Shown here piece by piece: positions 13,604 through 64,000 of a stretch of 64,000 nucleotides of DNA. Position numbers and translations under genes: made by a program. The DNA comes from Ascidia mentula (lineage: Eukaryota; Chordata; Ascidiacea; Phlebobranchia; Ascidiidae). Under the pieces are notes generated by a model that did not search any database, was not told the origin of the DNA, and was given only the letters and a program-made list of their open reading frames with translations. The number at the start of each line of letters is the position of its first letter. Positions within the stretch are counted from its first letter, which is position 1. Location of the stretch: NCBI GenBank assembly GCA_947561715.1, contig OX387200.1, forward strand, positions 20,400,501 through 20,464,500, read 5' to 3'.

Positions 13604-16600
13604 ATGAAACTGGTGGAAGCTTTTCTATTTCATCTCGTATTTATTTTTCTGTTTTCATTTTCAAAGTCGCGTAAGTTTACATTTATATTTTGCATAAGAT
13701 CGGAGCAATTGACTTGTTTCCACTTAAATGACACAAACAAGATCAAAGTGTGATTGTAATGTTTGTGCTAAGATGCACACAAATAAAAGCACCTTTGCTT
13801 TATTATGTTTTTGTTTTTCAGAGTCTGGTAACTGTGGATGTATCGTATGTGGTGCTGGACAATACTTGAATGAATCATCTCTCTGTGGGGAATGCCCAAC
13901 TGGCTTTTTGTAAGATCTGTGTGTTGTTTTATAAAAGCATTGTTATGTACAATACTATAAACATTATGTGATTTTTTAAATAAATGGACAAACCAAATCC
14001 AGTACAAGGAACCTAATGTTCAAATAATGGTACTCACTATTACATATAATGTCCCACTAGTATATGTGGTTACTGTGTATTTAAGTGTTGGTACTGAATC
14101 CTTGTACCTGTTTGTTTGATGCAGCATAAAAACTGCTGTCACTGACTTTCTTTCAAGTAAGAGTTGTTTAAACAGTTTGTATTTTCCCTGAGTATGATAA
14201 GTGCTCAACCAACATGGTGTGAGCGCTTATTGCTAGTTTCTTGAAGTGACTTTCAATCCACTCTTAACAATAGCACATAAATGAAGAGGCAATTTCCAGA
14301 CCGTCGAGTGCACATGTGTAGCTTTAAGTGCACTGTGGTGTTTGGGTGTTTCATGAGTTGGATTTCGGTTGTGATTCTTTGGGAATTTGTATGGTTAAGA
14401 ATAGATAAAATTTTAAATGTGTCAATGGAAACTTCACATACTACTTTGGTTCATATCATTTCACAGTTGTAAAAGACAATTTGTTGAAGCTATCACAGAT
14501 ATTGAACACAAAAGAAACATTGAGTCATGTTACATGTAAATAGTAGAACACTCTCCAGCTAACTACATACTTGTTGACTTTACCTTTTTCTACCAAGCAA
14601 AATAATATCAAACAATATGTGCAGACTAAAATTTGTTGAATCTGTACTTTTTAGTTGTCCAAACTCAAGCAATGCAGCTCTACCGTGTCCTGATGGAACC
14701 TTTACAAATTCCACTGCACAAGCTTCCTGCACTGAGTGTAACGCTGGATATATGTGTCCCCAGATGTAAGATTAGAATCTGTGATTAAAAATGGGATGGA
14801 ACTAATTAAAAAAAGCATGCTATAGTTTCAACTGGATAATGTATTTCTTGATTCTGGATGCTAAAATCAATGTTAAATTGTAAAACCACTGTAGATCATG
14901 TAAAATATGTAAAAGTATGTTGCGGTTTCATAAATTTTCTGTGCTTTGTTTACTAGAAATGGAACGGGAAATTCTAATCCGATTCCATGTCCTGTTGGTT
15001 TTTATTCAAGAAGAGGTGAAAGGAAATGTACTGAGTGTGATACAGGCTTCTTTACCAACACGGCAGCATCCTCTAGTTGTCAAGAATGCCCAACTGGACA
15101 TTTTTGCTCCTCAACCCTGGCTCAGTTATGTTCTGAAGGCTATTACTCTGTAGGGAGACAGACAGAGTGCACAGTCTGCCCACGTGGACAGTATACAAAC
15201 TCTACTGGGTCATCAGTCTGTTTTGACTGCTTTGAAGGACATCACTGTGGAAACCCTTCCGTATATCCTGTTCCTTGTCTTAGTGGCACTTATGCTGCAG
15301 CAAATTCTGCAAGTTGCTTGCCTTGTCCATCTGGACATTTTACTGCATCAAATGCGTCAGCAGGATGTATGGTTTGCCCAGCAGGCCATAGTTGTGTTAA
15401 TCCTGGTCAGGATCCTGTTGAATGTCTGGCTGGGACAGTTAGGTACATGTGCTAGTATGGATATTAGTTTAATGTTATTTTAACTCCATAGTGCAGAGGT
15501 TTCCAACTGGTGCCTTGCGATGCACTAGTGTGTCTTTTTAAATGCTGTCGGGTTTTGCAAACATCTCATATGAAATCTGGTTTTGCCTTGAGCTTTAAAC
15601 TTACAGTTTTCCATTGCAGTCTTGAAAGAGCAGTTGAATGTACACCTTGCGAAGAGGGCTTGACGTACATCCATCTTCCAGGGCAATCATCATGTCTTCC
15701 ATGTCCGGAAGGAAACCTTTGTTCCAATACTTCTTCACTACCTGTGGCCAATGTAAAAACAAAATTTAAAATTTAATTTAAATTCTTCGATTCTGTGCAG
15801 ATTTAGTTTTTAGAAGCTTGTTTACTGTGTTGGTAATATTGCATAATCTTACTTTTTTGCCAAATCTTTTATTGGCAAATACTTTTGCACAGTGCATGAT
15901 TTCGAAGGTAATGTTTTAATGTCTTAACCACAATATTAGCTTTGCGGATTGATTTTTTGTAACTATTTAAAAATTGTTGTTGTCTTAGGGTTGTGAGGCT
16001 GGTTGGTATTTATTCAACGGCACAGATTGTCAACGATGTCCCCCTGGAAGTTATTCCATGGATGGTTCAAAGAGTTGTCTATCCTGCCCAGCTGGACATT
16101 ATTGCCCAGGTAAAAAATATGTTTTTTATTCTTATTTTATTAGATTTTTGTTAAACTTTTTTGATAAGTTGTTTCTGGAATATAACAGAAATGTAATATT
16201 TGTGTTTTATTTCCTGTTGCAGATTTTGCAAGCAGGACATTTCTAGACTGTCTTCCAGGCACTTTTAGCATTTTAGGGTCGTCTAATTGCACACAATGCC
16301 CAGATGGGTATTATCAAAATTCCAGCAGTCAGTCATCCTGCATTGAATGCCCATCAGGTAAGTTGGACATATGGTCCTGATGCATTTGCATTATAATGTA
16401 ATTGAAATTGCACTAAAACCACCCGCAAGGTTGTTGTAGTAAATTTGCTGTAGCAACTTGCCTTGAAGTAGTTGGCTTAATTGTGCAACTAATGTTTTGT
16501 TAATACAGGATTTAGATGTCCCTCTCCAACTGATAATCCAATAATGTGTGGAAATGGAACTTATTCATCAGCAGGTTCCACAACATGCACAGCTTGCCAA

Positions 16601-18669: not shown

Positions 18670-21600
18670 GTAACTTATCACAACAATAGAGTGTTTCATT
18701 TTTAACCTAAGCTGCACTTACAATATATGCTTTTATTTCTAATAAAGTTTGCAACAATGTAAACTGTTCATGACGTTTTATCTGACATTTTAGCACTAAT
18801 ATTATTATTACCTTCATTCTTGGTACAATGTGCACATTCTAGGGACAACATGGACCTACTAGGTCTGTAGCAAACACACAGTAGTAGAATCTTTCACTTT
18901 AACACACAAAAGATACAATTTTATCTCCTGGCACAAAACTACCACCTTACATAATCCTACCGTGATATTAATTCTATTGTTCGAATAGCAGTCGAGTATA
19001 ATTTTGTCTTTTGTCCTCACTGGTTGCCAAATCAGACGAAGAAAAATGGCTTTGTTGGCTTGTTTGACCAGAGATAGTAAAAGTTATTTGTTATTCGGTT
19101 AATATTTAATCCAAGAAGTCTCGTTTGATCAGGACTTGAGAGAGCTTGATAACGCTCATTAGAAGCTTCCTATCGGACTAGTCTTAAGTTTTGTATAGGA
19201 ATGTTGAAGATTTTGTTTACGATTCATTCATATTATAACTGTTGTTTGGGTTTGCTGTAGATTTATTGTTAAAGAGGTAGCTAGGTAATTTTTTTTACTT
19301 TGTAAAAGCTATTGATTGTGGTTTATTGTAAACCTTATATGGGAAAGCATAACTTGTAGGAAGTTTTGGGGTCTTGATCTATTCTGTGAATTCAGTTTGC
19401 TGCACCTGATGGTAGCATGGTTTATCATTTTTGTGGGTGTTTTATCCAGACCTGGTCTGTTGTTGTTATGGATGTTAATTTTTAGAATGTTGTGTTGTTT
19501 TGATGAAGTTGGTATATACACTACTCAACAATTCACTGTTACTATTAAATCTCAACTTGGTTTTTACTTACAAGCGTTTATTGTAACTTCAATATAACTT
19601 GTTTTTTACTTAATACATAATTTTACCAAACCTTTAAAACAAATTTTTACTTGTATCTTGTTATTAATTCTAAGTTGGCTTTTCAATCAATTTGTAGTAG
19701 GTCTATATGAAATTATAGGACATTTCTTTTTTGTGCTTCTCTAAAGAAATGCAAAATTTGTTTTAAATTCATGTAGATTTTGCCATGTTATCGTATAGCT
19801 TTCTGAAATATTGACACAACCTCGTCGTTGTATTTCAAAATTTATAAATCTCCAAGAAACAAAACCTAGCAATTGACGTCAGAAAAGCCGCTTAGTGAGA
19901 AATCGGTCATAAATTGTTCAAACATTGTTTGCCTACTTCCTATGGAGAGGAGTGTGGATTGTTGAACCAGAGCAAATTAAAGTTTTATTCTTTACCCTGG
20001 CTTGTCTCTGTCTCAATAGCAGTGTCCACAACACACGAGCATAGTTTGTCTACTGTTGTCACAGCAAGCCAAACTCATAATGACTTGTACGGGCACGCTG
20101 TTTGCTTCTACCTGGCTTTCCACCAACCAATCTGTTATCCAAGACTGTCTGTGTTTTGCTTCTGTATTGACAACCCCATGTTTAAACACAATCTGGCTTT
20201 TACAAATGCCAAACCTTTAAACATTGTTTTGTTTCAATTCCATTTTTCACCACCAAGTCATCCTGTTTTGGGGACAAATCAACTAAACTTCTCTTCCAAT
20301 AAGTAAATAGCTTCCTTATGGTAATGGGCTTGTAGCAGTAAAGACCAAAAATTCCTAGAAGTTAAGGAACAACAATTTTTTGTAAATCGTCTAGAAAGAA
20401 GTGGAATCAAGGTTACTTGAGTCCATAGTTAGGATTTAACTTCAATTTACAGACAGAATATTGGCTTGAACCAGGGACTTAGCAATATTGATGCAATAGC
20501 TTTTTTCCTTGTTGTATATTATATTTATGCAATTCAAAAATTGGTAAATATCTGCATATTTTTACAGAAATAAGTTTATGTTGGTCATGAACATTATGTC
20601 ACAAAGAATGTAAGAAACGTGAACACATAATCATGGCACGACACTGTTTCCGCATCGAAAAATTTCTGTTACTTGTTTTTATATACTTTGCAAACATTTT
20701 TAGTCTTCCGGGTTCAACTGTATGTTCCGGTACCTCAGTTGGGACATATTATGACACAACAACTGGCGCAGCAGTTCCATGTCCGGTAAGTTTCCTTTAT
20801 TTTTTCTCCAGTCATTAGACCTTATTTGTCCTGACTCAGATATGCAAGTAAGTATTTGTGCAAAACAAATAAAATTATATGTATTTAATGATGCATATAA
20901 ATTTTCTGAACAAAATATATGTATTCTGTCCTTAGGCTGGAACATACTACAATTCGTCTTCGTCAACGTGTTCGGATTGCCCAAGTGGGTTTTTTTGTCA
21001 GGGCTACAGTGCCCCACCTGCACCATGTGTAAATGGGACTTATCAAGACTCTACAAGGCAGTCTTCGTGCAGACCATGTCCATCAGGTAAATGAAGATAT
21101 TTAATCTATAATATCTTAACAAAAGTAAGTGCCCCGGTGACATATATTCAGTTGCAACAAATGATAACGACATCAGGTTGTAATGAAACCGTTCTGAATA
21201 TTTAGTATTTCTATGGATTTAATGCTGGTGAATTTGTTTCCAGGTCAAAGTTGTTTGGATCCAGGAGACACACCTGTAGATTGCACTGCAGGGCAGTACA
21301 GTGGAGTTGGTCAAACATCATGCTTGGTAACCAAAAAAACAGCTTTATGTCTATAGCATTCAAATGCATAATTGTTTTTGTCACACGGTTAACATTATCA
21401 AGATATATATACCCTGAACTTTTTCTGAAATGTGAAAAAGGGACGTCATGCTCCATTAAATAATTCACTCAAAATCAGTATATTTGAACAACAATCAAGT
21501 TTACAAAAACTCTTATTTACTCAACTTTAGTTTCAAGTGCTGGCTTCGTTTCAATGTTTTTAATTTGTTTACAATGAAGTGATTCTATTTATACTAAGGT

Positions 21601-24600
21601 TAGGTTTAAATAGCTTTGTAATTATATCCAAAAGTTTTGAATTTTTAATGTGCAACATACATGTCAAAATGAGTATATGTGGTACTGGAAGAGTTTTGTG
21701 AAGGTATGCATTGGTTTATTATATATTGCTATTGCAGCCATGTCCAATTGGAACATACAGTGGGATCAAAGCACAAACTTGTACAGTGTGTCCTGCTGGG
21801 TCCGAATGTGCATCAGGCACACCAGGCACACCAGTACCTTGTAGTTCAGGTTCATATTCAAATACTGGGGATGATAAATGCTCATCTTGTTCTCAAGGTA
21901 CATTTTATGTCACAGAATTTTGCAACTTCATAAACTAGTCCTTGTATTTAAGCCTATTCAGGTCTGTTTGTTTTTTGGTAGTGGTGGTCTGCAAGAATGT
22001 GTGTTATCATAAATATGAGTTCTTAGGATTGAAAATAAAATAAATTGTTCTAAAATATTTTTTATCACCAACAACATGTATGCTGTTTTCTTTGAAACAA
22101 ATGGTTTTAAGCAGGAATTATCTTCATCAAATATGAAAACTATTGCATGTTGACATTTTAACAGGAACACATACCAACGGTTTGGATGGTGCCTCATTTT
22201 GTCTTTCATGTCCTGCTGGACATACCTGTATGAATGTTTCTCAGGTGCCACAAGCTTGTGTAGATGGAGAATACAGCTTGCAAGGCGATGTAAGCCATTA
22301 GTTTTTCCACTTTTCTTACACCTATACTATAACCAAGAATATGGTACTCCTTAAATATTAAATTGTTATATGAAATATGAGTTATAAAGTTACATGCAAT
22401 AACTGTACTTTGAAAAAAATTATAAATTTTGTCAGAAGTGTCTGTTTCTGTTGCAAGGTGCTGTAGAAATTTATGTTTCTTCTCTTTGTTATGTTTTGTC
22501 ACAGATGCAATGTAGCGCTTGTCCTGCTGGGTTTTACTGTCCGACCACATCAAGTATTGTTCCTTGCCCTTCAGGAACTTATTCCAATGGTAGTGTTGGG
22601 TCAACGGGTTGTAATGCTTGTCCTGCTGGTCAGTCATGTCTCAACCCAGCTGAAGCCCCAACAAATTGTGACGAAGGCCAATACTCACTCCAGGTAATAT
22701 GTTGTAAATATTATGCTAAAGTGGATATCATCAAAATTATCGAGGTATATTAAAGTAAAATTAATCTTCCACAGTTTTTTTTCTGCAGGTAAATAAAATT
22801 AGTATTGTGTAATTTTTCCTTTATGTTTCAAAATGTTTGCTTACTGGCAAAAACTAGTTTTTTATTGCAGAAGATTGGGATTATTCTTCTGTTAAATATG
22901 ACTTGTTTCGCTGTTTGTTTGATTGTTTTTTATTCTAAAAATAATTAAAACTCTCACAAAAATTGTATTTCAACAGGGAGATGGGGTTTGTACAACTTGC
23001 CCCGCTGGATCAAAGTGCCCAGATCGAACATCCACCCCAACAGCATGTGGCACAGGACAATATAGTTATGCAGGAAATGGAACTTGTTATGACTGTCCAG
23101 TCGGTGAGTGTTGCTTTTTGAAGTATTCAAAACCTACAACATAATATTATTGATATACTTTTCCCTAAACCCACTCACTTTTTACTGTCAAAGGTTACAT
23201 ATGTGTGGACCCAGCTGCAGCTCCACTAAAATGTGCCTTTGGTTCCACCACCAATGGACTGACTGGCCAAACTGTTTGTCAAGATTGTCCTGTGGGAAAA
23301 GTTTGCCAAGATGCATCGTGAGTATAACTAGTAAAAAATTTTACAACACAAAATCATAAGTGTCACTATTTAAATTATGGGAAAGCTTTGAAATAAATAT
23401 ATGAAAGAAATATGATTAAGAAAATCAAATAAGCAGCAATTTCTTGTTTCTGTATGCAATTAATGCTTTCCCATTGGATTGACCATTATGATTTTCACCA
23501 ATACTTTACTGTTATGTAGGGATGTTCCTTTTTCATGTCCTAATGGGACTTACTCGCCAGTCGGTGAAACAGAATGCATTTCCTGTCCAGCAGGAGTCAG
23601 TTGCAGTGGGGTAAGATTTACTGCAATTATCATTGAATACAGTTGGTGACTTGTAGCTTACTCTCCCTATATTTTTACAGGTATATTAAATTGAGAGTAT
23701 TTCAGCTTTTGTTATGCATTTTTTTGTATGTTTTGCATGATTTTTTAAAATAAACTTCGCTTTTGTTGAATGCGGTGATGTTAAATTCTTTAAAACAGAG
23801 TGAAACAACATTGTGTGAACCAGGAAGTTACTCGATTTATGGACAATCTGACTGCACTGGTTGTCCAGCAGGTTTTGAATGTCCCTACACTCATCAAGCT
23901 ATTGTAACTGTCTGCCAGAATGGTAAGTCAACCAATTTGTATTTATTGTCCACACAAGTACAAATAAAATGCTCCAGGATGTAATAATATACATGTTGTA
24001 TTCTTGAGTCACAAACAGTCCACTGCTCTAGAGTTATTATTCAAAATACTGCCATCTTATTTTTGTGCATTTGTTTCTTATTCCAGTCACACAACTCGTG
24101 ATTTAACAGATCTGCTAACACTACAATGTGTTCTTTTTTATCAAAGGTACCTTTTCTCTTGAGAATCAGACAGTATGCACAGTTTGTCCACCAGGATTCG
24201 CTTGTCCAAGCACAACAACAAACACATCCCTAGTTGAATGCTCTCCAGGTTACTATTCAACTGGTGGTCAAAGCGAATGTACTGAATGTCCAGCTGGTCA
24301 AGCCTGCAGTCAACCTGATGGAAGTGGAAATACCTACTGCTTACCTGTAAGACAATGCCATTTATCAAATGTAAAATGACAATGATGTTTTTATAGGGAG
24401 AATACTCATTGAATGGAGAACCTATGTGCACACCGTGCACTGCTGGTTATGCTTGTCCTTTTACCAACAGTAATGCTACTGTTGAATGTGGTAATGGTAC
24501 TTTCTCTGGACCAGGCCAATCTGTAAGTAAATTATATAAACTGATTTGGCCAAGCTTTTATAATTTTAATGCAAAATATGCAATTTTTAACACTAAGTTA

Positions 24601-51600: not shown

Positions 51601-54600
51601 TAATAAAAAATAAAGGAACTTACCAAAATAGATAGCTGTTTCACTAAGCAGAGCAGGCCAAATTTTGTGGTCTTTATAACATTGTTTCTACGTTACGTCT
51701 TTCTATAGGTTTTTACTGCACGGGGAAATCTTACATGGGGAATCCCCTTGGCGAAAGTTTCGGCGACCAATGTCCACCGGGTAGTTATTGTCCCACTAAC
51801 ACCAGCATCCCAATAGAATGCCAGGCCGGTAAGAGTGTGGTTGGTTTTGTGATTTTGCACGAACCTTTTTTTTCTTATTGCTTTCCGGCGCGTTTTTGCG
51901 AGCGATATGCTCTGGAGTAGAAAGTACAATATATGAAGATGTTTCTAATTTACAGGAACTTATAATCCTGAATATCAGAAGTCTTCCCCCTCTGATTGTC
52001 TTCCGTGTGATCCTGGGTCGTTTTGCAACGGAACCGGTCTTCCAAATGTTTCGGGTATGTTGTTTGGTTATGAATTCTTATCGGATGTTAACTATTCCTA
52101 TCAACATGGATTGGACTCGTTAAACATTGATCTGCCTTCTTCTATAAAGTTTCGCTGTGTTGGTCAATTGCAGTTAAAATAACCGTATCTTTGAGGGACA
52201 AAGATAAGTTACTTTTCGGTTTTGGTTTGTGCATATTCTCACTTCTAATCTTACATTGCTGCAAACCAAATGGTCAACAGACAAAAAGAGCAAGAAATAT
52301 CGTGTTGCAAACGTGAATGCAACAAACGCCGCTTGTTACTCTTATTACTAAACACCTACACGATATTTAATATAAACTGCTTTGATCACTGTATTTACAT
52401 GTATCAGGCGACTGCTGGGAGCGGTATTATTGCGATGGAAACGCGAGCACACCAACCCAACACGATTGTCCACCAGGTCATTTCTGCCCGCCTGCCTCGT
52501 CCTCTCCTTTCCCTTGTGTTAACGGAACATACTCAAACACCAGCAACGCGGACGTGTGCAGGTCCTGTCCAATAGGATTTTACTGCGTTGATTCGCAAAT
52601 CGAACCCCAGCCCTGTCCGATGGGAAATTATTGTCCGGCTTCGACCGGTTGGAATTGGCGGCCTTGCCCTACTGGTGAGTTTTGCTTATATTTTATGATT
52701 TTTGTGACGTTGACTTATGGAATGTCGTTGAGTGTCTGCTTATAACTGATTATAAATGATTAATTTTATCACGTCTTTTGAAAAGCAAAAGTTTGTTTTG
52801 TAACAAATGTTCAAAGTGCTTGACATTATACAACAATTTACATTACAACAATTACTCAGCAAAAAAACTACTGTTTTTCAGGCACATTCAATCCTGCATT
52901 TGGAAAAAGCACCGAAAGTGAATGTACCCAGTGTACGGCTGGATCGTACTGCGAGACGCCTGGACAATCCAATGTTACTGGATCTTGCACTGGTGGATAC
53001 AACTGCATAATCGGTGTGGACGTTCCCAATCCCGACAATAGCAAAAATAAGGTCAGTTAACGTCACAACTTGGTTACAGCAATACGTCGTTTAGAAGGAG
53101 AATGTATATGGTGGTTAAGGCTGTGGAATATGTGATATTTGTGTGCAAATCTGTGGTAAATTTAAAGGGCAAAATACAAGTTAACATCTTTTTATACATA
53201 ACCCTCCCCATTATTGCAACAAAATCCAACTCCTAGACTTGCCAGGTGTGCAAAAACTTTTCAAAGTACTAAATATATATTTATTGGCAGGGTTCTGGTG
53301 AGGAGTGTCAACAAGGTTACCAATGTCCATTTGGATTAGCCGAACCTTGTCCTCTCGGCACTTACGCCAACACAACACAAACCAAACTATGTCACGACTG
53401 CCCAGCAGGTTGGTATTTTACTCATGCTTGTCTCCTATAACTTTGTTTAAAACCAAGTATGCTCATTCAAATGGTAAATGGGTTTATTAGTAGAAATGTA
53501 TTATAAAAGAAGACTCTTTTTGCGGTAGCACTTTTTAAGCTACCTCTGCAAGTTATTCAGATACCAATTTGACATCAGGAGACCTGCCTAATGAATTCTA
53601 ATCTTTAATAAACCACTCTGCAAAACAAAAAAAACACAGATTGTTAGTTAAAACTGTATAAACAACATCTATCTTATGTAAGTTAATTATTTCACTCAAA
53701 CTTCTCTTTGCTTGACTTCCAGGTTTTTACTGTCCTGGGAATACAATCGATCCTGTTCCCTGCATAGCTGGTCACTATTGCCCGACTGGAACCCAAGCAG
53801 AAAAACAATTTGCTTGTCCACCAGGAACATTCAACAATCAAACCGGTACACATATAAATGTCTGTATATATCCTAAGTCAGATCTTCACGTGTACAAAGT
53901 GTCGTTTTACGACATATATGGAGATGTTACAACATTTTGTGTTGAAACTTAAATTTGAGTCGTCAAATTGCGTTGCGTAACGGGTGACGTCATACTGAGC
54001 GATAAAATGGCAAATTCTAATACTCAAAAGTGTACATTACACGTAAACGTTGCCTTTAACGTTACGATGATTATGGTATTGTAAAGCAATTTTATATATT
54101 TATGTAAGAACTTAATAAACTCAAGCAAGCTTAACTGACAAAAAAAACTACTAAGTAACAAATTGTTTTGGTAAAAAAAATACTTATGCGCATCAATTCA
54201 TCATGCTTATTCATTGTTCCAGAGCAAGGAAGTTTAAGTAGTTGTCTACCTTGCACTGCTGGTAAATACTGCGAGGGAGACGGTAATTCCGAACCTACAG
54301 CATTTTGTGACCCTGGTTTTTATTGCTCTGGTGGAGCTGATTCGGCAAGACCTGTTACGTATGGAACTGATGTATCTGGCAGGTAAGCCCAACCAAACAC
54401 ACAAATCAACACAAAGATCTTTCATTGAATATATACGCTACGTGGGCGCTTGAAGTTTTTTTAAACTTAATTTTTCGAAAATGTGGTCCAATTTGGGAAT
54501 TACCAACACTACTAGTTTGAAACAAAAGTCAAAAAATTTGTGGCCTAATATAAGATATACCAATGCCGACAAAAATAAAACTACAACGGTTTATTTTGTC

Positions 54601-57600
54601 TTTTCAGCAACACAACATGTGCCTCACCATCAGAGTGCCTGTGCCCTAATCTCAGTTCTACCACAGGAGGGTTGTGCATGCCTGGTAAGCAAATATAAAT
54701 AAATAAAAAATGTATATTTGCTTGAAATAGGAAATCCACTTTATGATTTTATTGTGTGTGTTTAGGTTATTACTGCCGAGAAGGATCCGCCCAGCCCATA
54801 CCTTGCGACCAGGGAACTTATTGTCCAACATTTGAACTATCACAACCCCGAGGAAACTGTTCAGCCGGTTACTACTGTGACTATGGAAGGTAGGTATCCA
54901 TGTTCTACATGCGTTAAAATTAATCCGGCGTCACTGTGCAGAAGCACTAAAGTTTATTGTATGTCCAATGTCTTTAGTATTGCAGATGTGTTAGACGAGT
55001 TCTGTACTTTAACTTTTTCTATTTAACAGCACGAGTCAACAGGAGACTGACTGCATAAGTGGACATTATTGTGAAGCGGGCGCTGTGGTTCCTATGGGAT
55101 GTCCTCCCGGGTTTTACATAAATACAACCAACAATAAGCAGCTATCAGACTGTCTGCCCTGTATTGCTGGATCGTTTTGTCCAGGTAGGTTGCCAACCAA
55201 TGCTGTTTCAGAAGAAATTTTCGTGTTTATGTGGTTTCAACTTGTCTCTTTAACTTCAATAGCTTTCGACAGTTTGTTGTTTATTCCTTAAAAACGAATC
55301 CGTTTCACAGACACATCAGGTATAAAAGTGTTACTGTATTTCAACTTTTGTATATCGTTAAAATAAAACAAATATTGTCGAAACTCCGTTTGTTATTTCG
55401 CCTGGTGTTCAACATGATTTCAAGATTCTTTGCCTCAAACACCATGGCAACACTAAATTACGTGAAATAATTTATTATTTGGCAATTTTCGCCACAGCTT
55501 TGGTCGGCCGGACACTCAATACCCATAATCGACTTATTTTAAACCCTTGATCCCTTCATTTTAAATCATGCACTACAGGATTTGGAAACAGTTACCCGAT
55601 AGGCGATTGTCTGGCCGGATACTACTGCCCAGAAGGAAGTGAACGGGAAGATGAGATGATTTGTGACGTCAACCATTATTGCGTCACCGGATCTAAGAAC
55701 CAAACAGTGTGTGAGGCTGGAACTTATCAACCTAACAGGGGAAGGGCGAGCTGTGAGAATTGTGAGGCGGGAAAACTATGCGATCCAAGTGATGGTGAGT
55801 TCGACTCTGTGTTAAACTTGTTTTTTGGTAGTTTGGGTTGGCGAGGCGTTCAACTGGCTTGTACAAAAAGTAATATTAATCGTTTTGGCCAATATTCCAG
55901 TAGAATTTTTGCTCTCAGAATTCTGGGTAATTCAGTGAATAGTGGTTGTAAGTCGTTTTTGTATCGTAATTAAATCGCGACGCCATTCAAGCTTGATTAA
56001 TGACATGCAAAACGGAGATTAGTATTATTGCTAAACTACACAGGTATAACAGATAAATAATTGTCAGAGTTTCAATAGCTTAACCGTGCGTTGTTTGTTT
56101 TGGAAAAACAAACAGGAAATTAAAACTTAAGTAATTGCTTGTGAACTGTTTTGGACAGACTGAATGTTAAAAAAACTTTATTTGCACGAGCTTTGGCAAG
56201 ATGCTGCAATGATTGGTCAGTCTATCCAAAAAGTGCACCAGCAATTGCTAAAGGTTATAGACCTGAGAATGATACGGCGTATTAAAGAAAAATAAAAATA
56301 CCTTTTTCTTGACCTTTCTCTCTTTCACATAAAGGTAACATAGCACCTGAGGATTGTCCACTTGGTTATTTCTGCCCGAGTGGAACCAAAACCGCCCAAC
56401 CGTGTCCAGCTGGAAAGTACGGACCGTCTCCAGGCTTGACCAGCGAATCGAGCTGTGCCTCGTGTCCACGTGGTAAATAGATTGGTTTATTCTAAAAACT
56501 ACACCATTGACCAAGTGTTATTTACGTGCATCATACAGCATAACTTGAAGTAATTTTCTACGTTCACCCTCTGTACAACCACACGGCTTTGGTCATCTCT
56601 TTTGAATATTCTCAGCGTATCTTTAGTTATTAATCCTTGTACTTGTTGTGCCACTGAGTGAAATTTAGTCTTACAACTAAGTAGGTTGAAGTTTACAGAG
56701 GATATAGCCTATTCCTCTACAATCTGTGATGTTTACAACATGCTCTTGTTCATAGGAAAATATTGCTTGGGAGGGGAAGGAAACTTCACTGGAGATTGTT
56801 CGCCAGGTTATTACTGCACTGGAGGCGCCGCACGACCAGATCCGTATTTCCAAAACGTTACAGCTCGTAAGCACAATTTGAATAACACTTGATTGACCTT
56901 TTTTATGCTGGCGTTTTTTTACATTCGATAAATATTATTGTACTTGTGAGGTTTCGTCGTATTATCCCTAAACTTAAGTGTGGTATCAACGTTTGCTAAA
57001 ATACTATCAAAACGTGTAGCATTATTTACTTTAAACACATGTTCGGTGGACGAAAGAACAAACCATGCCCGGTGACATTCTCGCCTGCACGGTTTGTAAA
57101 CAATGTACGTGTATGTTTCTTCCAAATACATCTGCCACTATATACCAAAAGTCATCATAGTTTATGTTGTACGATATCGCGTCATAGAACTGGTCATGAT
57201 TTCCTTTGTCTCAAAGCAAACAAACCGAGGAAGCCAGATAATATTTTTCGTATACATGGTGCGAAAGACGTCGTAAGAAATACCTACAAATTCTGGTTTT
57301 GTTTTGCAGCCTTTACTGGCAACAGTATTTGTCCACCCGGCTTTTACTGTACGGGTCCGGATCTAGCGGTGATATGTCCTGCTGGAACTTACAACGAGAA
57401 TAATGGAAGTAAAAGCGACACCGACTGCTTGGCTTGTCCTCCCGGCAAATATTGTCCAATCGGCGGCCTCACTGATTCCAACAACTTACCCGATTGTACT
57501 GCTGGGTGGGTTGCTTGTTCCGTGTTAATTATGTTCACATTAGAAACTACTTAGTTAATACAGAGGGTAAGTAACCCTTAAGGCAAAGAACTTTTTGTTT

Positions 57601-60600
57601 CTCTTTGCAATTTATTTCCTTTTGGAACTACATGTGCGTATAAATATACTGAAACCATCCCACTATGAGATTGTTAAACAAATGTTGAAAAACGCCAAAA
57701 CACTCCTAGCGTAAAAGTTACGTTTGACATGATACTGTAAATAGCAATTGGCTGAACTTGAGCCATTTCTTCAAACAAGAATAAATGAAAAAAACGTGAA
57801 AACGTGAAGTTCTCAGCATGTCTACATTCGTGTAAAAACCTACAAAAAAATCGAATCTTTTTAGATCGGTTTGCGTGGAAGGTGCGATCGTGTCAGCCCC
57901 CAACGATGCAACCGGATATCCGTGTCCCGCTGGTTATTTCTGTCCAGTGGGAACCTCGATACCTCAAGGTTGTCCTCCTGGTTCTTACAGCACGACGGGA
58001 AGTGCCGAATGCTCGTTGTGCTCTCCAGGAAAGATGTGTCCAACTTACAACATGAGTGTTGAGCTAGATTGCACTTTAGGTTGGTTTTTTTATGGTGAAT
58101 TTAGGTTTTTCACTTTATATTGGAAAGGCGGACAGTTGTTATGTTACACAAATGTTGACATATAACTTCCTGCTTAGGTCACTTTTGCCCCGGTAACACC
58201 TCCGTTCCTGAACCTTGCCCAGTTTCAACTTTCAATCCAACCAACGCGAATGCTAAATCTTCAGGCGATTGTCAATCTTGTTCTCCTGGAAAGTTCTGCA
58301 ATGGAACTGGTCTTGCTTCTGTATCAGGTTTGTGATTAGGAACTACTTTGGAATCCAAGTCTGCCGCGCTTGTCTTTAACGACTTGGGATGTGACGATAC
58401 TTTATCCAATTAATATCGCAAAGCACTTTCAATTTTTCTTTCATCTTTTTCATTTCTGTGCAGCTTGAAGTAATAGCCGTACTTTCGAATCAGCTATATC
58501 TAAATAATAAGTAATGCGTTACTAAATCGAGTGAAACCAACCGCCATCGCAGCTTACTTACTTGTTTTACTTCAGGAGATTGCGAGGCCGGATTTCTATG
58601 CGAAGGAGGAAGTTCCACTCCTACTCCCACATCCGGGGGTTCCCCTTACAACGGGTTATGTCCCGTGGGTAGTTACTGTGAGGCCGGGGTCACTGGCCCC
58701 ACTCCATGTCGCAGGGGAACCATGCGGAACGTCACCGGGGCAGCGTCATTGAGCGATTGCAACACTTGTACTCCCGTAAGTACAAGCATCAAGTTTTTGA
58801 AACATATGTTATCCGGTAGGGTTAAGATGGGAGCAGATATCATAGAAACATCCTTATGAATGTGAAAGCTTATGGTTTGATTTGGTTCTCAACCGTTTAA
58901 ATGTTGGGGCCGAAAATTCGAAACCACCGAAGAAATTTAAATATTAATTCTTCGGGTTTTATTAAAAATTATTGTCGATTGAAATACTTTTGCAGTAGTT
59001 TAATGAAAGCCACTAACAAGAACGTTGGGTAAAAGCAATAAAAACTCATTGACAATTAAAGCGTTTATCTTTTTGCTTAGGGATATTACTGCAGCAACGA
59101 CGGACAATCCGCTCCAACAGCCGAATGTTCGTGTGGTTATTTCTGTCCCGGAAACACAACTTCAAACCAAAACCCAAACCAGTTTTCATGCCCGACTGGT
59201 CATAGTTGCCCGCCAGGGTCGTCACAACCTCAGCCTTGCAAGACAGGTAAAGTATAGCCACGTGTAAATAGTGAATTGTAACTACCCTGAGCAAAGTATG
59301 ACAATGGGAATGCTTAATCTGTAGCAAGAGTATTCAAAATAACTCTCAAAGAGTGATGAACGATTAGCGTCAATGCGATCTTTTATTTAAATTACACATA
59401 AATATTTATTTCAACATAACGGCATGGTCAGTTTCTGTGCTTATTCAAAGAAAATCTTACTCTGTAGTAAGAGTTATTACATAAAAATTCACCAGTATAC
59501 ATTTTTGTAATGTTACAAATCACAGTCTAAAATTAAAACTCAAACACGTTTTTTTTTTCTGAGAAATGGAAATGCGCGGTCATTTGCATTTTAAACGTTG
59601 ACACACAGAGACGAAGATAAGTTGGACCAAAAGATTGCGTTTTTTGGATCTTATTATGTTAACTTTTTCTTTGCAGGAACTTACCAACCGAACGTAGAAT
59701 CGTGTGATTGTCAGAACTGCCGACCTGGTTTTTATTGTCAAGACTCGTTATCTGGGGGTCAGGTTGAATGCCCAGCTCACAACTACTGTCCAGAAGGTGT
59801 GAAAACCTTTTTATCTGAACAACTGATTACAAGTTTTGATATGTGGTGTTAAGTAGTTTTTAGAACGATTTTTTTTAGCGTCGTGCTTGATGCTCAGCAA
59901 ACGTTTTGATTCTGATCAGTTACCTCCTGTTTAGTTGCTAATTATGCAAGAAATTAAAAGTTGTACTTTTCTGAACGCCTTAGTTGACGCTTCCAGATGA
60001 CGCATTTTTTGGTTGTTGAATTAAACGTATCGGCAAATTACAAAACTTTCGCTCTTTTTCAGCCACTCCGTATCCAATCCCCTGTCCCAACGGAACTTAC
60101 ACTGATCCTACTCAAGTTGGTTTGGAATCTCCCGCCCAATGCAATTCCTGTCCACCAGGAAAATACTGCACTGGAGGATCGATTGTGGTTCGTGTTTTTC
60201 TTTTACTAAAAATGATATCAGTTGCAAGAACATTAGGGCACGATAAAGATTATCGTGGATTGAAACTCGTATCGTTGCGATAGTATTGGTTAGTGTTTCG
60301 AACCCGGTTTCGATATTGATGGAATTTAATTTGTTTCTTCTCCACTGATAGGGAAACGAGAGAAACTGATTCAACAAAAACTAAAGTGATTTTCTCATAT
60401 TACATGTTTTACTGAATTATCGTCATTTCTTTCACAAATAGCAGTAACAACTTCCACACAAAAGTGCTGTTGAAAAGGGATAGAATGTGTAAAACGTGAA
60501 CACAAGGATACTTGTATAGTGTAACGTGTCACCCCGCTTACAGGGCAATTGCAACGAGCGATACTTCTGTGCATCTCGAGCTTATTCACCGAACGGGAAC

Positions 60601-63600
60601 TCAACCAACCTTATTCCATGTGCAGACGATGAGACTTGTATCGGTTTGTGTCCGGGCGGTTCCTACTGCCCCTCTGGTATAAATGACCCCATACCTTGTC
60701 CTGAAAACACCCTGCGAGCCAACCCAGGTTAGTAAACCGAACTATTTATTAAACGCGATTTTAAAACACTTGAATTATGCTGTGTTGAAATTGAAAATTT
60801 CTGCTGCAAACAATTTGGTTGGTAAATGTAAACTGCATTTGGGATGTTTGAAAGCTTATCAATTATTGTATCAATTATTTTTTATTATCCGTGGTTCAGT
60901 TTTATGAACTGTTCGTAAATTAAATTACTTCTATTACTTTAACCACATTTTAACCATTTTTTGCTTTCCAGGTGCTGGTTCAGTGTCTGACTGTATGTTC
61001 TGCCCGAACGGTTCCTGGTGTAGAGAAGGTGAACCAGTAGCTTACCCATGCCCGGCCGGATTTTACTGTGATGGGATGGGAGCATACGGACCTCAGCCAT
61101 GCCCAGCTAACACATACAGGAGTGACACAGGTTAGATTTTGATGTCATACGTTTACGTTTATACGAATCTTATTTATTATCAGTGGAATTTCGCCAAAGC
61201 GCGTTAGATCTTAAAGGTTTCCAGTAGCTTGTTGCAATTGTTGTCAGTCCAGTTTATTTCGTGAAACCAAATGTTGTCTGTTTTTCGCAGGTGGAAGCAG
61301 TCCATCGGATTGTTCGCCTTGTCCACCAGGGTTCTGGTGCAACGAGACTGGTTTAACCAACTTCACCTCTTCTGAATGTGCTCTGGGATATTACTGCATT
61401 GGAGGTAATGTATTAACTTTTTAACAGGATATTTCGTCCTACTTAAGCTGAGCAGCAATAAACAAAGAAATATATTTTTAATGGGATGGTTTTTATAGTT
61501 CTTTGTTGCTGAACCAAAGAATCTCCATTTTCCTAAATCCCGAAACAGTAATTAGCATAACTAGACGATCATCTTCAAACTTTTAGCGCAACATCAATTT
61601 TCTCATTAGTTTGTGTTTTTCACAGGTGGACACGATCCAGTCATGTGTCCCGGTACAACCTTGCGAGACACGCCAGGAGCAAAGAACGTGACCGACTGCA
61701 CAAGTTGTACGCCTGGTTATTACTGCCCCAACCCCAACAACACAGGTATATGGGTGGCAAAGATACTGTTTGGTGGTAACTGAAGATAAAATAAATTTTT
61801 GATCGAAAAATCGACATATGTTTTCAAGCTGTTTTAAATTATATAATTTGTTTCAAGTAATTAAAATGCTTTAACCTTTGGTGTTTAATAACTCATTTGT
61901 GTAATTTTGCGGCAGGATCGCCAAACATCAACGGGATTCCCTGCCCACCTGGATACGAGTGCCCTGAGGGTTCAGCCCAACCCACAATTTGTCCACCAGG
62001 ATTTTACTGTCCAGCTCTGACGTATCAACCAACTACATGCACAGCAGGTAAACCAGAAAATATGTCTATTTTATCAAGTCATACACCTGGTGAATCGATT
62101 TCTTGGCGTTCAACCACTTTTCTATTATTGTTGACATAGTTCCATTTTACACAAATCCTACACTGTGTTCAGGTTACTACTGCCCCGCCGGATCAACCAC
62201 CATCACAATATGTGACTACCCCTTCTACTGTCCCAACGGTACAGGAGACCCGTTACCTTGCGATATTGGGTATCAACCTCTCAATATATCCGGATTAAGA
62301 GATTCTTTGGATGTGGCTTGCATGGTTTGTCCTGTCGGCTCTTATAGAAATTCTTCAACCGACGACAAATGTCTGCCCTGTCCACCCGGATATTATTGCC
62401 CTGAAGGTCTGTAGCTGTAGTCGGTTTTATTATCAATTAAAACATGTCTTCTGTATATTTTTAAGTCGTATTATTAAACACTTTGTGACTTTTTGAAAAA
62501 TAATATTTCCAAGTTACACGAACCTTTATAAAGACCTGATGCAATTCAGGTACCGGAAACTACCAGAAAAACCCTTGCCCCAGTGGGTCATACTGTCCTG
62601 AAGGAGGGGTTACGTCAGTGGGAGGGGTTACAGGGTTACCCATTCCCTGCCCCCCTGGTAGATACGGACCCCAACCTGGTGCTGACTTCTCAGCTTGTTT
62701 TCCTTGTCAGTCGGGCATGTACAACAACTTGGAGGGCCAGACTGCCTGTTTCCCTTGTGGTAGCGCAGCCACATCGCAAGCTGAAGCTACAGCGTGCACA
62801 TGCTTAGGCAAGTAGTGTGTTTTATATGCGTTTTGTTTTGGTACGTTGTGGGGACAACGTTGCGAGTCAATGTCGTGGGCGCTTGTACTTAACGTGATTA
62901 GCATGGCTGTTTGGTTTTGTTTGACACGGTTTCAAGCAAATAACCCTCGAAATTTTGTCAACGAATAAACGGGATGTAAAGTTTTTTAAATTTTAGGATT
63001 TAATCGAGCTTTCCAACCGAGCGATGGATCTTGCATTTGCGAAAGTGGATACGTTTATTACGACGAAGCCGACCAACTGCAAGTAGATGGTATGGAAGTT
63101 CAACAGTGTTATGGTCTGCTAAATCATACTTACATTGACATGTATTGGCAATATGATAGGAACTGGTTAAACGTATTGCTCAAAATACATTACATTTAAA
63201 AAAAATTCCTTGCGGCTTGTGGTCGATGGGTATAAATGTGTTGCTTAGCCTAATTTTTAACGTAAATGTATATGACTAATTTGTAAAAAATCATATATTG
63301 CGAAAAATGTCAAGCCCTAAACCCGGAACAATAAAAGTCATGGTAGTAACGTTTTTACCTAAACTCAGCACAAACCTCATCCACTTCTTATCGCAGGAAA
63401 CTCCCAGTATTCTTGTCAACCTATAGTGGATGAGAGGTGCGGAAGTGGTGAAGCTCGATCAAGCACAACTCGAACTTGCGTCGATCCGAATGTTGTGGAT
63501 TGCACAGGCCCCTGTGCCAACTTCGGCGGGGGGGGTTTCAACACAGACTTAGGGGAGTGTGTTTGCAACTTAGTGACTTATCCGGAAGAGATCCAGTGTT

Positions 63601-64000
63601 CGACTGGTTGCAACTCAGTAAGTGGTTAATCATGACCAACCTTTTTCATTTATTTTCACTCCAGTAAAGTTTTTTTTAGGTAATTGTAAAAGTCACAAAA
63701 ATTAAAGGCTACAAAAAATAAATTTTAATCGTTCTACTTGATAGTGTTATTTACACTAAAGTGATAAATTGACCCAGTTAAGAAACACCAATCCAGACTA
63801 CGTAATTTAATATTGAAGTTTGCGATCATTCATATAGATTTAAAATACATTTCCAACCAAAAATGGGCGAAATATGTCGGTCAGTACATATGAGGTGTAT
63901 AACAAGGAATCGAGCCGAATGTTCTTCTAAAACTTAACTTATTTGTAGATGTCTGCAGTGCTGGATTCCGGCGGTGCGTTGAGCCTCACTACGACCACCA
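13604..64000 (+). CDS. Giant secreted/surface protein with tandem ephrin-receptor-like (GCC2/GCC3) cysteine-rich repeats; 116 exons in window, 3' end outside
   Basis: Seen: a signal peptide (MKLVEAFLFHLVFIFLFSFS, then KSQSG), followed by 115 further exons, each flanked by AG and GT (two GC) and joining in phase to 17,566 nt, about 5,855 residues, with no stop. Every exon carries the same grammar: C-P-x-G-x-Y-C, P-x-P-C-P-x-G-T-Y and C-x-x-C-x-x-G. Known: this matches the Pfam ephrin-receptor-like / GCC2_GCC3 family, found in Eph receptor and SCUBE ectodomains and in very large repeat proteins of marine invertebrates. N-x-T/S sequons, often NGT or NGS, are frequent. Inferred role: a rigid, glycosylated, disulfide-rich extracellular or cell-surface fibre. 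I can name no orthologue. No transmembrane helix, kinase, EGF or CUB domain is seen within the window. Exon tables are in the block entries below. RNA could still show that some exons are alternative or that two genes are fused by my tracing, though the unbroken phase argues against it. Confidence 0.88.
18670..20703 (+). other. Longest intron of the giant gene
   Basis: AT-rich intron between exons 12 and 13. A 130-codon + frame at 19914-20306 and a 93-codon frame at 19316-19597 occur, but neither shows the repeat cysteine grammar or any familiar domain. I see no clear RNA gene or repeat. Confidence 0.6.
20704..25885 (+). CDS. Giant gene block B: exons 13-27 (short-repeat region continues)
   Basis: Exons: 20704..20785, 20936..21086, 21244..21326, 21738..21897, 22165..22289, 22505..22693, 22977..23103, 23194..23317, 23520..23610, 23799..23922, 24147..24346, 24397..24522, 24908..25111, 25305..25470, 25778..25885. 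All join in phase. Typical units read CPAGxxCxxxxxxPVPCxxGTYS, then GQxxCxxCPAGxxC. The codon choice looks AT-leaning (TGT, CCT, GCT, GGA). Phase-0 introns are frequent here (for example after exons 13, 15, 17, 18, 21, 23, 24 and 25). Exon 13 follows a 2-kb intron (18670-20703), the longest seen in the gene. Confidence 0.85.
24562..24709 (+). repeat. Recent 74-bp tandem duplication in intron 24
   Basis: Copy 1 (24562..24635) and copy 2 (24636..24709) match at all but about one position (CACTAAG versus CACAAAG). The near-identity in an otherwise diverged intron indicates a recent event. Confidence 0.9.
25998..34157 (+). CDS. Giant gene block C: exons 28-45 (transition to longer repeat units)
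   Basis: Exons: 25998..26105, 26206..26400, 26858..26986, 27358..27550, 27934..28064, 28252..28485, 28744..28885, 29053..29176, 29576..29764, 30011..30133, 30375..30557, 30943..31137, 31503..31611, 31881..32075, 32440..32588, 32965..33042, 33330..33492, 34044..34157. From exon 28 on, units contain the G-Y-Y-C or G-F-Y-C block absent from the first exons. Later exons add a longer pattern: C-x-x-C-x-P-G-x-F/Y-C, C-x-G-Y-Y-C-x-G-G-x-x, G-x-C-P-x-G-x-Y-C-P-x-G-[ST], P-x-P-C-P-x-G-T-Y. From exon 34 (28.74 kb) the exons look visibly richer in C and G at third positions (CCG, TCG, GCG) than blocks A and B. Confidence 0.85.
29235..29309 (+). pseudogene. Decayed extra exon of the giant gene
   Basis: After a good acceptor (TAATACAG, G at 29234) the sequence reads, in the frame continuing exon 35, GPPNYCSPCLGPRNQNS and reaches a stop at 29307-29309 with no GT donor in the right phase. 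The start resembles the functional exon 36 (GFGQPECTLCDAGFYC): G, about 4 residues, C, x-x-C. The spliced frame is intact only if it is skipped (exon 35 to 36), so it looks like a duplicated exon that lost its 3' half. Confidence 0.5.
34439..42584 (+). CDS. Giant gene block D: exons 46-64
   Basis: Exons: 34439..34624, 34867..35007, 35275..35341, 35722..35854, 36246..36384, 36674..36862, 37138..37287, 37502..37681, 37950..38063, 38246..38395, 38624..38776, 39168..39383, 39806..39919, 40129..40273, 40555..40757, 41095..41310, 41569..41675, 41895..42142, 42418..42584. Thirteen of these 19 exons end in phase 1. Many begin inside the Gly codon of GYYC/GFYC or GTY. Exon 52 ends at 37287 with a non-GT donor (GCCAGT). 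Using the nearby GT at 37292 instead would throw exon 53 out of frame. Repeated motifs: YFCPxGT, PCPPGTYG, CxPCDPGKFC. Confidence 0.85.
41420..41461 (+). repeat. Duplicated copy of the exon 62 acceptor region (decoy splice site)
   Basis: The block TATAAC-TCAATGTA...CCAGGTGTAAATG-AAA-TGC occurs here and again at 41542..41585, where it forms the end of intron 61 and the start of exon 62. The upstream copy has an AG acceptor at the same place, but its reading frame stops within about 10 codons. Confidence 0.6.
42904..53051 (+). CDS. Giant gene block E: exons 65-90
   Basis: Exons: 42904..43017, 43091..43207, 43537..43648, 43811..43923, 44181..44365, 44479..44545, 44803..45141, 45330..45458, 45713..45858, 46127..46286, 46593..46703, 47078..47265, 47483..47729, 47887..47983, 48234..48391, 48765..48938, 49188..49297, 49749..49905, 50196..50295, 50641..50729, 50915..51022, 51281..51442, 51709..51828, 51956..52054, 52408..52674, 52882..53051. 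All splice in phase. The long unit is well formed here, for example exon 71 (339 nt): CPIGHYCPAQT, CPPGTYNAQT, CTYCDNGTYC, CAAGFYCVNGS, CPNGSYCLEGD, CPSGTYNSN. Exons 66 and 79 contain a variant without the usual CPxG (SCLCPVRDD, SCACPLDGD), which recurs in exons 53 and 94. Exon 72 uses a weak donor (GTCGGA). Confidence 0.84.
44751..44772 (-). other. Degenerate relative of the CTGATGA-hairpin-GAAA motif
   Basis: The minus strand reads TTGATGAAGGTCGAAAGAG. It keeps the TGATGAAG and CGAAAG ends of the motif at 48613-48639 but lacks the hairpin between them. It lies in the intron before exon 71. Confidence 0.25.
46900..47004 (+). repeat. Dispersed repeat, copy 1 (intron 75)
   Basis: It shares an ordered series of blocks with 59321..59437: AGTGATG-ACGAT-AG, TCTTTTATTT, ACA-AAAT-TTTATTTC, CATAA-GGCAT-GTCAGTTTC. 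The copies are diverged but collinear and in the same orientation; element type unknown. Confidence 0.55.
48137..48222 (-). mobile_element. tRNA-derived SINE-like repeat, copy 2 (intron 78)
   Basis: Same sequence as the element at 11531..11620 apart from a few substitutions and a shorter spacer: ACCACACCGGGATTTGAACC, CTGGGCACGAATCCCG, TCAGGTTTTTGACCAAT, CAATCACCCGCCC. It ends only about 10 nt before the acceptor of exon 79 (48233), so it supplies part of the 3' splice region. Confidence 0.55.
48613..48639 (-). ncRNA. Hammerhead-ribozyme-like core motif in intron 79
   Basis: On the minus strand: CTGATGA (48639-48633), A, stem GCGAG (48631-48627), loop GGGAA, stem CTCGC (48621-48617), then GAAA (48616-48613). 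This is the same design as 9732-9766: CTGATGA, one A, a 4-5 bp hairpin, GAAA. The next bases are GC, not C-GTC, so stem III and the cleavage triplet are not evident. Confidence 0.4.
53291..62406 (+). CDS. Giant gene block F: exons 91-112
   Basis: Exons: 53291..53408, 53723..53845, 54223..54382, 54608..54684, 54766..54889, 55030..55184, 55579..55794, 56335..56472, 56756..56866, 57310..57505, 57865..58079, 58178..58327, 58576..58775, 59081..59246, 59677..59796, 60063..60187, 60544..60727, 60972..61130, 61291..61404, 61626..61745, 61916..62047, 62173..62406. All splice in phase. Exon 106 has a weak donor (GTTCGT). Exon 107 contains an unusual CADDETCIGLCPGGSYCPSG stretch with an extra Cys. Toward the end the units shorten again (exons 108-111: CPNGSWC, CPPGFWC, CTPGYYC, CPPGYEC). 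Confidence 0.84.
59321..59437 (+). repeat. Dispersed repeat, copy 2 (intron 104)
   Basis: Collinear with 46900..47004 (see there). Tandem A/T-rich blocks around TATTTATTTC-ACATAACGGC are shared. No coding capacity is visible. Confidence 0.55.
62550..64000 (+). CDS. Giant gene block G: exons 113-116, end of the repeat array and start of a new segment
   Basis: Exons: 62550..62807, 62997..63089, 63397..63617, 63949..64000 (open at the window edge). Exon 113 holds the last typical units (CPPGRYG, CFPCQSGMYNN, CFPCG) and ends ACTCL. Exon 114 reads GFNRAFQPSDGSCICESGY, VYYDEADQ: an EGF-like/linker-type sequence, which often follows the last GCC2_GCC3 repeat. Exon 115 has a different Cys pattern (CVDPNVVDCTGPCANF, GECVCN). 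Exon 116 (MSAVLDSGGALSLTTT) has no Cys in view, marking departure from the Cys-rich array. Exon 113 uses a consensus GC donor (AG/GCAAGT). What follows the window (transmembrane region, receptor module or stop) cannot be seen. Confidence 0.82.

What the first reader, a model, noticed from the sequence alone, without database searches (positions are those of the whole stretch)
13604..64000. A single giant gene: at least 116 exons and 5,855 residues of ephrin-receptor-like repeats
Hand splicing gives an unbroken frame from a signal peptide at 13604 to the window edge, with 115 consecutive phase-compatible junctions. I know of no named chordate protein of this design and size. It could be a huge secreted or surface fibre (tunic, sperm/egg coat, epithelial mucin-like layer).
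Basis: partly seen in the sequence, partly recalled or inferred. Interest (0 to 1): 0.9.

Follow-up and report, generated by a model that had tools for sequence, protein, structure and literature searches.

The report
Giant ascidian membrane-anchored cysteine-rich rod protein
A sea squirt gene appears to encode a membrane protein of more than 7,000 residues, with about 5,000 residues of cysteine-rich repeats outside the cell and about 1,500 inside; a sister gene of like size lies in the same genome, and the function is unknown.

Summary
The open spliced frame is real. The window cuts the gene: in the contig it runs on to a stop at 77,059 in window numbering (155 exons, 7,692 residues), adding a furin-like site, a conserved membrane-near domain, one transmembrane helix, a charged tail and a conserved C-terminal domain. 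A paralog of the same build (draft: 134 exons, 8,121 residues) lies on contig C2. The mitochondrial code is ascidian. Two corrections. The repeats are of two kinds: in the first quarter 14 of 25 exons match Pfam Ephrin_rec_like, later 17 of 75; the closest solved structure for both kinds is the Chlamydomonas mastigoneme protein Mst1. And "one gene from 13,604" is doubtful: the longest intron (2,034 bp) precedes a second in-frame signal-peptide-like start at 20,633, so exons 1-12 may be a separate small gene. The giant gene from 20,633 (7,071 residues) stands either way. Most likely function, inferred only: a membrane-anchored, furin-cut extracellular rod near 200 nm long, coupled to the cell interior.

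The parts
13604..13670 (+). Exon 1: signal peptide MKLVEAFLFHLVFIFLFSFSKS, donor in phase 1
   Evidence: hydropathy; the paralog starts with a like exon, also phase 1
13822..18669 (+). Exons 2-12: Ephrin_rec_like ladder, residues 23-645. Either the 5' part of the giant gene or a separate small gene (645 aa) ending at the TAA 18,671-18,673, with AATAAA 67 bases further on at 18,741
   Evidence: PF07699 65.1 bits in exon 4
18670..20703 (+). Intron 12 (2,034 bp) or intergenic stretch; no second copy found in this genome
20633..20785 (+). Exon 13 with in-frame upstream extension: candidate second start with signal peptide MARHCFRIEKFLLLVFIYFANIFS; as an internal exon it starts at 20,704
20936..26986 (+). 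Exons 14-30: rest of the Ephrin_rec_like ladder (C..G.[FY]S..G...C..CPAG), residues 673-1,475
27358..62807 (+). Exons 31-113: second repeat type (C..GYYCP.G....P.PCP.GTYN.......C..C), residues 1,476-5,758; weak PF07699, Mst1-like by profile
62997..63617 (+). Exons 114-115: 'FQPSDGSCIC' cysteine-rich module, shared with the paralog, closing the repeat region
63949..64000 (+). Exon 116, cut by the window edge (runs to 64,096). Beyond the edge (64,001 = G000:C67:20,464,501): exon 117 64,281-64,464 with RRRR site; exons 118-121 membrane-near domain; exon 122 66,235-66,409 transmembrane helix; exons 123-147 charged tail to 74,191; exons 148-155 C-terminal part, stop ending at 77,059

Best explanation
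The locus encodes a giant type I single-pass membrane protein of an ascidian, 7,071 residues if it starts at 20,633 or 7,692 if it starts at 13,604. Order: signal peptide; Ephrin_rec_like ladder; about 4,280 residues of a second cysteine-rich repeat type; a basic furin-like site (RRRR) and a GRRLL motif; a conserved membrane-near domain; one transmembrane helix; a cytoplasmic tail of about 1,540 residues with a charged, proline-poor part and a conserved C-terminal domain. Most likely it works as an extracellular rod or cable: disulfide-locked repeats stack head to tail into a stiff rod (about 200 nm if the repeats rise as in Mst1, where 678 residues span 26 nm), probably cut by furin near the membrane, self-associating side by side as Mst1 does, with the long tail tying it to cytoskeleton or a scaffold. 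Shown by sequence: layout, conservation in a paralog, repeat kinship with Mst1. Inferred: rod shape and length, furin cutting, self-association, the tie inside the cell, and any organ (cilia, epithelial surface, tunic side).
For: Continuous frame through the tail; with tail parameters from the paralog, 26 strong exons at 63,901-77,100 on the + strand, 25 identical to model exons, 5 on the - strand, and 1, 1, 2, 3 in four control strands of 13.2 kb. Helix hydropathy 3.48 here and 3.47 in the paralog; apart from the N-terminal signal peptides no other 19-residue segment exceeds 1.6. Paralog on C2, minus strand 7,956,648-7,890,417, with the same order of parts; membrane-near domain plus helix 38% identical, C-terminal domain 34%. 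Searches with single sequences of these two domains hit, at E<=10, only this locus and that region of C2. RRRRYADED here and RRRRRSV in the paralog. A ladder exon hits Mst1 8tx1 at E 5.7e-13 and EPHB6 at 7.3e-5; a profile of 75 second-type repeat exons hits Mst1 at E 3e-17. Mst1 cysteine-rich domain: residues 1,176-1,853, 26 nm, 26 disulfides, antiparallel dimer (passages of PMC11015965). Cysteine 11% over the first 5,894 residues, 0.4% beyond residue 6,000.
Against: No transcript or protein data. A 458-residue piece of the second repeat type alone had no PDB hit at E<=1. A coiled coil is only weakly supported: heptad score z 2.4 against shuffles for residues 6,214-7,306, z 0.7 in the paralog. 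The membrane-near and C-terminal domains had no Pfam match and no PDB match below E 0.08, so the tail's partners are unknown. The rod length borrows Mst1's rise. Structure prediction could not be run.
Confidence: 0.55

Rival explanations
1. A second start at 20,633 is real. Either there are two genes: a small secreted Ephrin_rec_like protein (13,604-18,673, 645 aa) and the giant gene with its own signal peptide (20,633-77,059, 7,071 aa); or one locus has two promoters, exon 13 serving both as first and as internal exon.
For: The signal-peptide-like start ranks first of 52 in-frame upstream ATGs before 287 exons (hydropathy 2.90, n-region charge +2; real signal peptides 2.81 and 2.40). Intron 12 is the longest of 154 (2,034 bp; next 745), z 4.3, without a second copy in the genome. 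Acceptor of exon 13 is weak (0.7). The giant part's ladder aligns from its first repeats with the start of the paralog's ladder (635 bits, 36% identity; next register 516), its last regular motif falling at residue 672 of the giant part against 684 in the paralog (positions). The paralog's first 120, 180 and 250 mature residues fit the second start better than the first (201/179, 299/248, 381/339; equal, 139, at 80 residues). No like ladder was seen by eye among the open frames in the 23 kb upstream of the paralog.
Against: Splicing 12 to 13 restores the repeat exactly: CQTGLF|SLPGSTVC fits C..G.[FY]S..G...C; of 47 open AG sites 4 put a cysteine there and only this one has the S and G too. The AATAAA 67 bases after the read-through stop proves little: 21 of 154 introns have a stop within two codons and 8 of those 21 a poly(A) hexamer within 150 nt. 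Exon 1-2 phases (1, 2) match the paralog's first exons. In a stricter register test the second start ranks 9th and 13th of 68, the first 35th, and the best positions lie inside exons 1-12. In the full-length comparison the top alignment pairs residue 975 here with residue 24 of the paralog, neither start with start.
Confidence: 0.6
2. One gene with the single start at 13,604; the second signal-peptide-like stretch is chance translation of a T-rich acceptor region.
For: Repeat register across the junction; phases of exons 1-2 as in the paralog; donor of exon 12 is strong (7.2); full-length alignments do not single out the second start.
Against: Weak acceptor at exon 13 (0.7), length outlier intron, rank of the second signal peptide.
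Confidence: 0.35
3. A pseudogene or artefact: the frame only looks open because a splice model can pick exons freely.
For: The model chose the splice sites; 9 of 155 exons have a site scoring below 2, the weakest the donor of exon 52 at -0.7.
Against: Controls; similarity to a paralog along the whole length, from about 18-23% in the charged tail to 29-31% in the repeats and 34-38% in the two unnamed domains; no in-frame stop in 23,079 coding bases.
Confidence: 0.03

Closest known systems
Mst1, mastigoneme protein of Chlamydomonas reinhardtii (PDB 8tx1)
   Same: Top PDB match for both repeat types (E 5.7e-13 with one ladder exon; 3e-17 with a 75-exon profile of the second type). It builds a long extracellular filament.
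   Different: The Mst1 chain is 1,987 aa with one 678-residue cysteine-rich domain, Ig-like domains and a poly(hydroxyproline) helix; the filament is tethered through MST3 (passages of PMC11015965). Here the cysteine-rich part is about 8 times longer and carries its own transmembrane helix and tail.
Eph receptors (EPHB6, EPHB2)
   Same: Share the Ephrin_rec_like repeat (EPHB6 E 7.3e-5; EPHB2 0.024)
   Different: No kinase, ephrin-binding, fn3 or SAM match in the pieces scanned
ELAPOR1, SVEP1/polydom, SCUBE (animal proteins with Ephrin_rec_like modules; SVEP1 and SCUBE are recalled)
   Same: Ephrin_rec_like or TNFR-like cysteine-rich modules; 6 of 25 early exons match the ELAPOR1 TNFR-like model at E<=0.01
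   Different: Recalled, not tested: they mix few such repeats with other domains and have no such tail
FMG1, ciliary glycocalyx protein of Chlamydomonas
   Same: Large ciliary membrane chain with a cysteine-rich part (passages of PMC12021028)
   Different: Built of 34 beta-chunk repeats of about 110 residues (same passages), not cysteine ladders

Membership tests
Ephrin_rec_like (PF07699) repeat proteins | At least one repeat above Pfam's gathering score (23.1 bits) | tested here: met
   Exon 4: 65.1 bits, 3 stretches; exon 10: 23.5 bits
   14 of 25 exons at 14.6-27.0 kb but 17 of 75 at 27.4-62.8 kb at E<=0.01, best of the later ones 2.9e-6. Scanned exon by exon, so repeats split by introns can be missed
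Eph receptor tyrosine kinases | Ephrin-binding domain, fn3, kinase and SAM domains | tested here: not met
   None listed for 100 ectodomain exons (exon by exon), for the membrane-near piece, for 717 of the 1,093 residues of the charged tail or for the last 386 residues; the other 376 tail residues were not scanned
Mastigoneme Mst1 family | Cysteine-rich growth-factor-receptor-type rod domain | tested here: met
   (sequence only; fold not predicted)
Mastigoneme Mst1 family | Poly(hydroxyproline) helix at the C-terminal side | tested here: not met
   Here a transmembrane helix and a charged tail with 6 prolines in 1,093 residues follow
Mastigoneme Mst1 family | Polymerises into ciliary filaments | not testable with these tools
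   No protein or imaging data
Single-pass type I membrane proteins | N-terminal signal and one internal transmembrane helix | tested here: met
   Hydropathy scan, two segments above 1.6; no dedicated predictor was on hand
Secreted extracellular-matrix or mucin fibre | No transmembrane segment | tested here: not met

The most novel reading that the evidence does not exclude
A chordate carries an animal counterpart of the mastigoneme or ciliary-coat cable: two membrane-anchored rods of about 0.8 MDa, each near 200 nm long, made of the same cysteine-rich repeat superfamily that forms the algal ciliary filament, but fused in one chain to a transmembrane helix and a long cytoplasmic tail that couples the outside cable to the inside of the cell.
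Probability: 0.2. Interest if true: 0.8.

Novelty: new variant of a known kind. Interest (0 to 1): 0.55.

Why it matters
Proteins above 7,000 residues are rare, and the well-known ones work in muscle, cell junctions or mucus (recalled). Here two paralogous giants with the same unusual layout sit in one small ascidian genome, with a domain on each side of the membrane that matched nothing in the Pfam and PDB searches made. If the rod reading is right they give a chordate model for very long membrane-anchored extracellular cables, and a link between algal ciliary filaments and animal cell surfaces that can be tested by staining. The case also shows how a fixed window can hide the most telling part of a gene.

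Tried and rejected
A first, simple Viterbi splicer over-predicted past the gene's end and made micro-exons; a semi-Markov version with length terms replaced it. Exons 1-12 as plain continuation was questioned and left open. A repeat element as cause of the long intron was rejected: one match only, itself (that search skips very common words). Rusticalin of the ascidian Styela was considered because of its cysteine-rich repeats and rejected: its spacing Cx6Cx6-7Cx8Cx7CC differs (passages of PMC6339383). Oikopleura house proteins: the words ephrin and GCC2 do not occur in the text (PMC3390340, word search and passages). Ten paper searches listed no description of such a protein; of the papers only passages were seen: PMC4224354, PMC12716839, PMC11015965, PMC12021028, PMC6339383, PMC6993872, PMC3390340; the rest as listings. 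Rfam: 0 hits in the window at gathering scores. AlphaFold jobs for two repeat alignments never started.

Full report
Setting. The window is G000:C67:20,400,501-20,464,500 of a 195.8 Mb assembly in 79 contigs. COX1 on contig C79 has 18 AGA/AGG codons in its open frame, the first two possibly before the true start; read as glycine they fall on what I recall as conserved glycines of the enzyme, which is the ascidian mitochondrial code. The species was not determined.

Gene model. I fetched 140 kb downstream of the window, joined the first stretches to it and wrote a splice model: coding score, donor and acceptor matrices, exon and intron length terms, stop-safe phases. After retraining it settles on 155 exons, one frame of 7,692 residues from ATG 13,604 to a stop ending at 77,059 in window numbering. 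The start, the first donor and the stop were fixed by hand after reading the sequence; everything between was free. Inside the window there are 115 whole exons and part of a 116th, 5,888 residues. Small differences in single exons are likely: exon 114 has an in-frame alternative donor 24 bases upstream, and 9 of 155 exons have a splice site scoring below 2. The piece typed into one search used that shorter form of exon 114.

Is it more than chance? Parameters trained on the paralog alone find 101 strong exons on the + strand of 13,604-63,600, 91 identical to model exons, against 2 on the - strand, 0 and 1 on the two strands of the first 13 kb, 4, 0, 1 and 2 on four 50 kb control strands, and 0 in five simulated sequences. 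In the tail the numbers are 26 (25 identical), 5 on the other strand, and 1, 1, 2, 3 on control strands. The paralog model had been seeded with window parameters, so these tests are not fully independent.

What lies beyond the edge. Exon 117 carries RRRR, then come four exons of a membrane-near domain (shared with the paralog: SNYPVY..., LYNTN..FDFG.FRQL), exon 122 with the helix LLGLFALCVLVLVIAIIVW, 25 exons of charged tail, and a C-terminal part with the shared VH[TC]M[AS]HIA. The hydropathy scan shows only the N-terminal signal and this helix above 1.6. In Pfam the membrane-near piece matched only by its last repeats, and the 717 tail residues scanned and the last 386 residues matched nothing at E<=0.1. 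In the PDB the best values were 0.088 and 0.93 for single sequences and 1.4 and 0.75 for two-sequence profiles, which I take as chance.

A sister gene. Single-sequence searches of the genome with the C-terminal and the membrane-near domains hit, at E<=10, only this locus and one region of C2. The C2 gene, modelled in the same way from a signal peptide at 7,956,648 on the minus strand to 7,890,417, has 134 exons and 8,121 residues. This is a draft: its start and first donor were fixed by hand and some tail exons are weak. It repeats the whole order: signal peptide, ladder, second repeat type, RRRRRSV, membrane-near domain, helix, tail, C-terminal domain. Identity is 38% over the membrane-near domain and helix, 34% over the C-terminal domain, about 29-31% in the repeats and 18-23% in the charged tail. 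Its tail has extra repeats of the kind DPITGLTVPI..HPQTGAVHPLGG; the 640-residue piece that holds them had no Pfam match below E 0.05.

Repeats. The regular ladder C..G.[FY].......C..C stops near residue 1,300 here and near 690 in the paralog, with two stray later motifs in each. After that a second type rules, residues 1,476-5,758 here. Scanned exon by exon, 14 of 25 early exons and 17 of 75 later ones match PF07699 at E<=0.01. One ladder exon finds Mst1 of the Chlamydomonas mastigoneme (E 5.7e-13) and EPHB6. A 458-residue piece of the second type alone finds nothing at E<=1, but a profile of 75 exons finds Mst1 at 3e-17, then TNFRSF21 at 0.013 and EPHB2 at 0.024. [quoted passage not shown] By Mst1's 26 nm per 678 residues (passages of PMC11015965) the ectodomain up to the furin-like site would be about 204 nm from the second start or 228 nm from the first. 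This is an extrapolation.

One gene or two? For a second start: intron 12 is 2,034 bp where the next longest is 745 (z 4.3), it has no second copy, and exon 13 extended upstream reads MARHCFRIEKFLLLVFIYFANIFS-LPG, the best signal-peptide-like start among 52 candidates over 287 exons of both genes. The ladder of the giant part aligns from its first repeats with the start of the paralog's (635 bits against 516 for the next register). For one gene: the join CQTGLF|SLPGSTVC fits the 14-residue repeat motif, where S stands at position 7 in 26 of 29 such motifs and G at position 10 in 19 of 29 (this one included), and of 47 open AG sites none other does so. The phases of exons 1 and 2 equal the paralog's. 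The full-length top alignment pairs residue 975 with residue 24 of the paralog, and a wider register test ranks the second start 9th and 13th and the first 35th of 68 positions, the best lying within exons 1-12: the second start is favoured over the first, but neither stands out. Poly(A) and stop evidence is uninformative: 21 of 154 introns have a stop within two codons and 8 of those have a poly(A) hexamer. My estimate: a real second start (two genes or two promoters) 0.6, a single start at 13,604 0.35. The giant gene itself does not depend on this.

How it may work. A type I membrane protein with a disulfide-rich rod, a basic cleavage site close to the membrane and a very long tail is built for reach and for linking. 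I take a membrane-anchored extracellular cable as most likely. Self-association through the repeats is by analogy with Mst1. The charged part of the tail is 44% D, E, R and K, with 6 prolines in 1,093 residues; the heptad test gives z 2.4 here and 0.7 in the paralog, so a continuous coiled coil is not established. Which cells make it is unknown.

Known or new. The listings of ten paper searches showed no description of such a protein. They cover open-licence full text only and no eukaryote protein database was available, so predicted relatives may well exist unnamed in other animals. I rate it a new variant of a known kind: known repeat superfamily, unusual size and layout, unnamed domains.

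Noticed in passing
L035:6050-8716 (C2:7,976,050-7,978,716, + strand): Two neighbouring open frames that look like GILT thiol reductases (name recalled, not searched) lie upstream of the paralog; one reads SLCPGCREF and the other SMCPGAQDF, so the second seems to have lost one active-site cysteine.
   Followed up: no
C1:9,477,880-9,478,996 (+) and C1:9,664,650-9,665,765 (-), loci L001-L005, L007: Two Ephrin_rec_like places about 186 kb apart in opposite orientation, two of their three matches with equal scores: a recent inverted duplication or an assembly effect.
   Followed up: partly
window 1935-2831, - strand: A 299-codon open frame rich in Pro, Gln and Ser with no Pfam match at E<=0.01; its core (2,080-2,407) was the one strong exon call on the minus strand of the first 13 kb.
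   Followed up: partly
C2:7,911,214-7,908,274, - strand (tail of the paralog): The paralog's tail has repeats such as DPITGLTVPICAMTIHPQTGAVHPLGG that I do not see in the window gene's tail; no Pfam match below E 0.05.
   Followed up: partly
window 62550-62807: Exon 113 uses a GC donor (GCAAGT) in the model, the only non-GT donor of 154.
   Followed up: no
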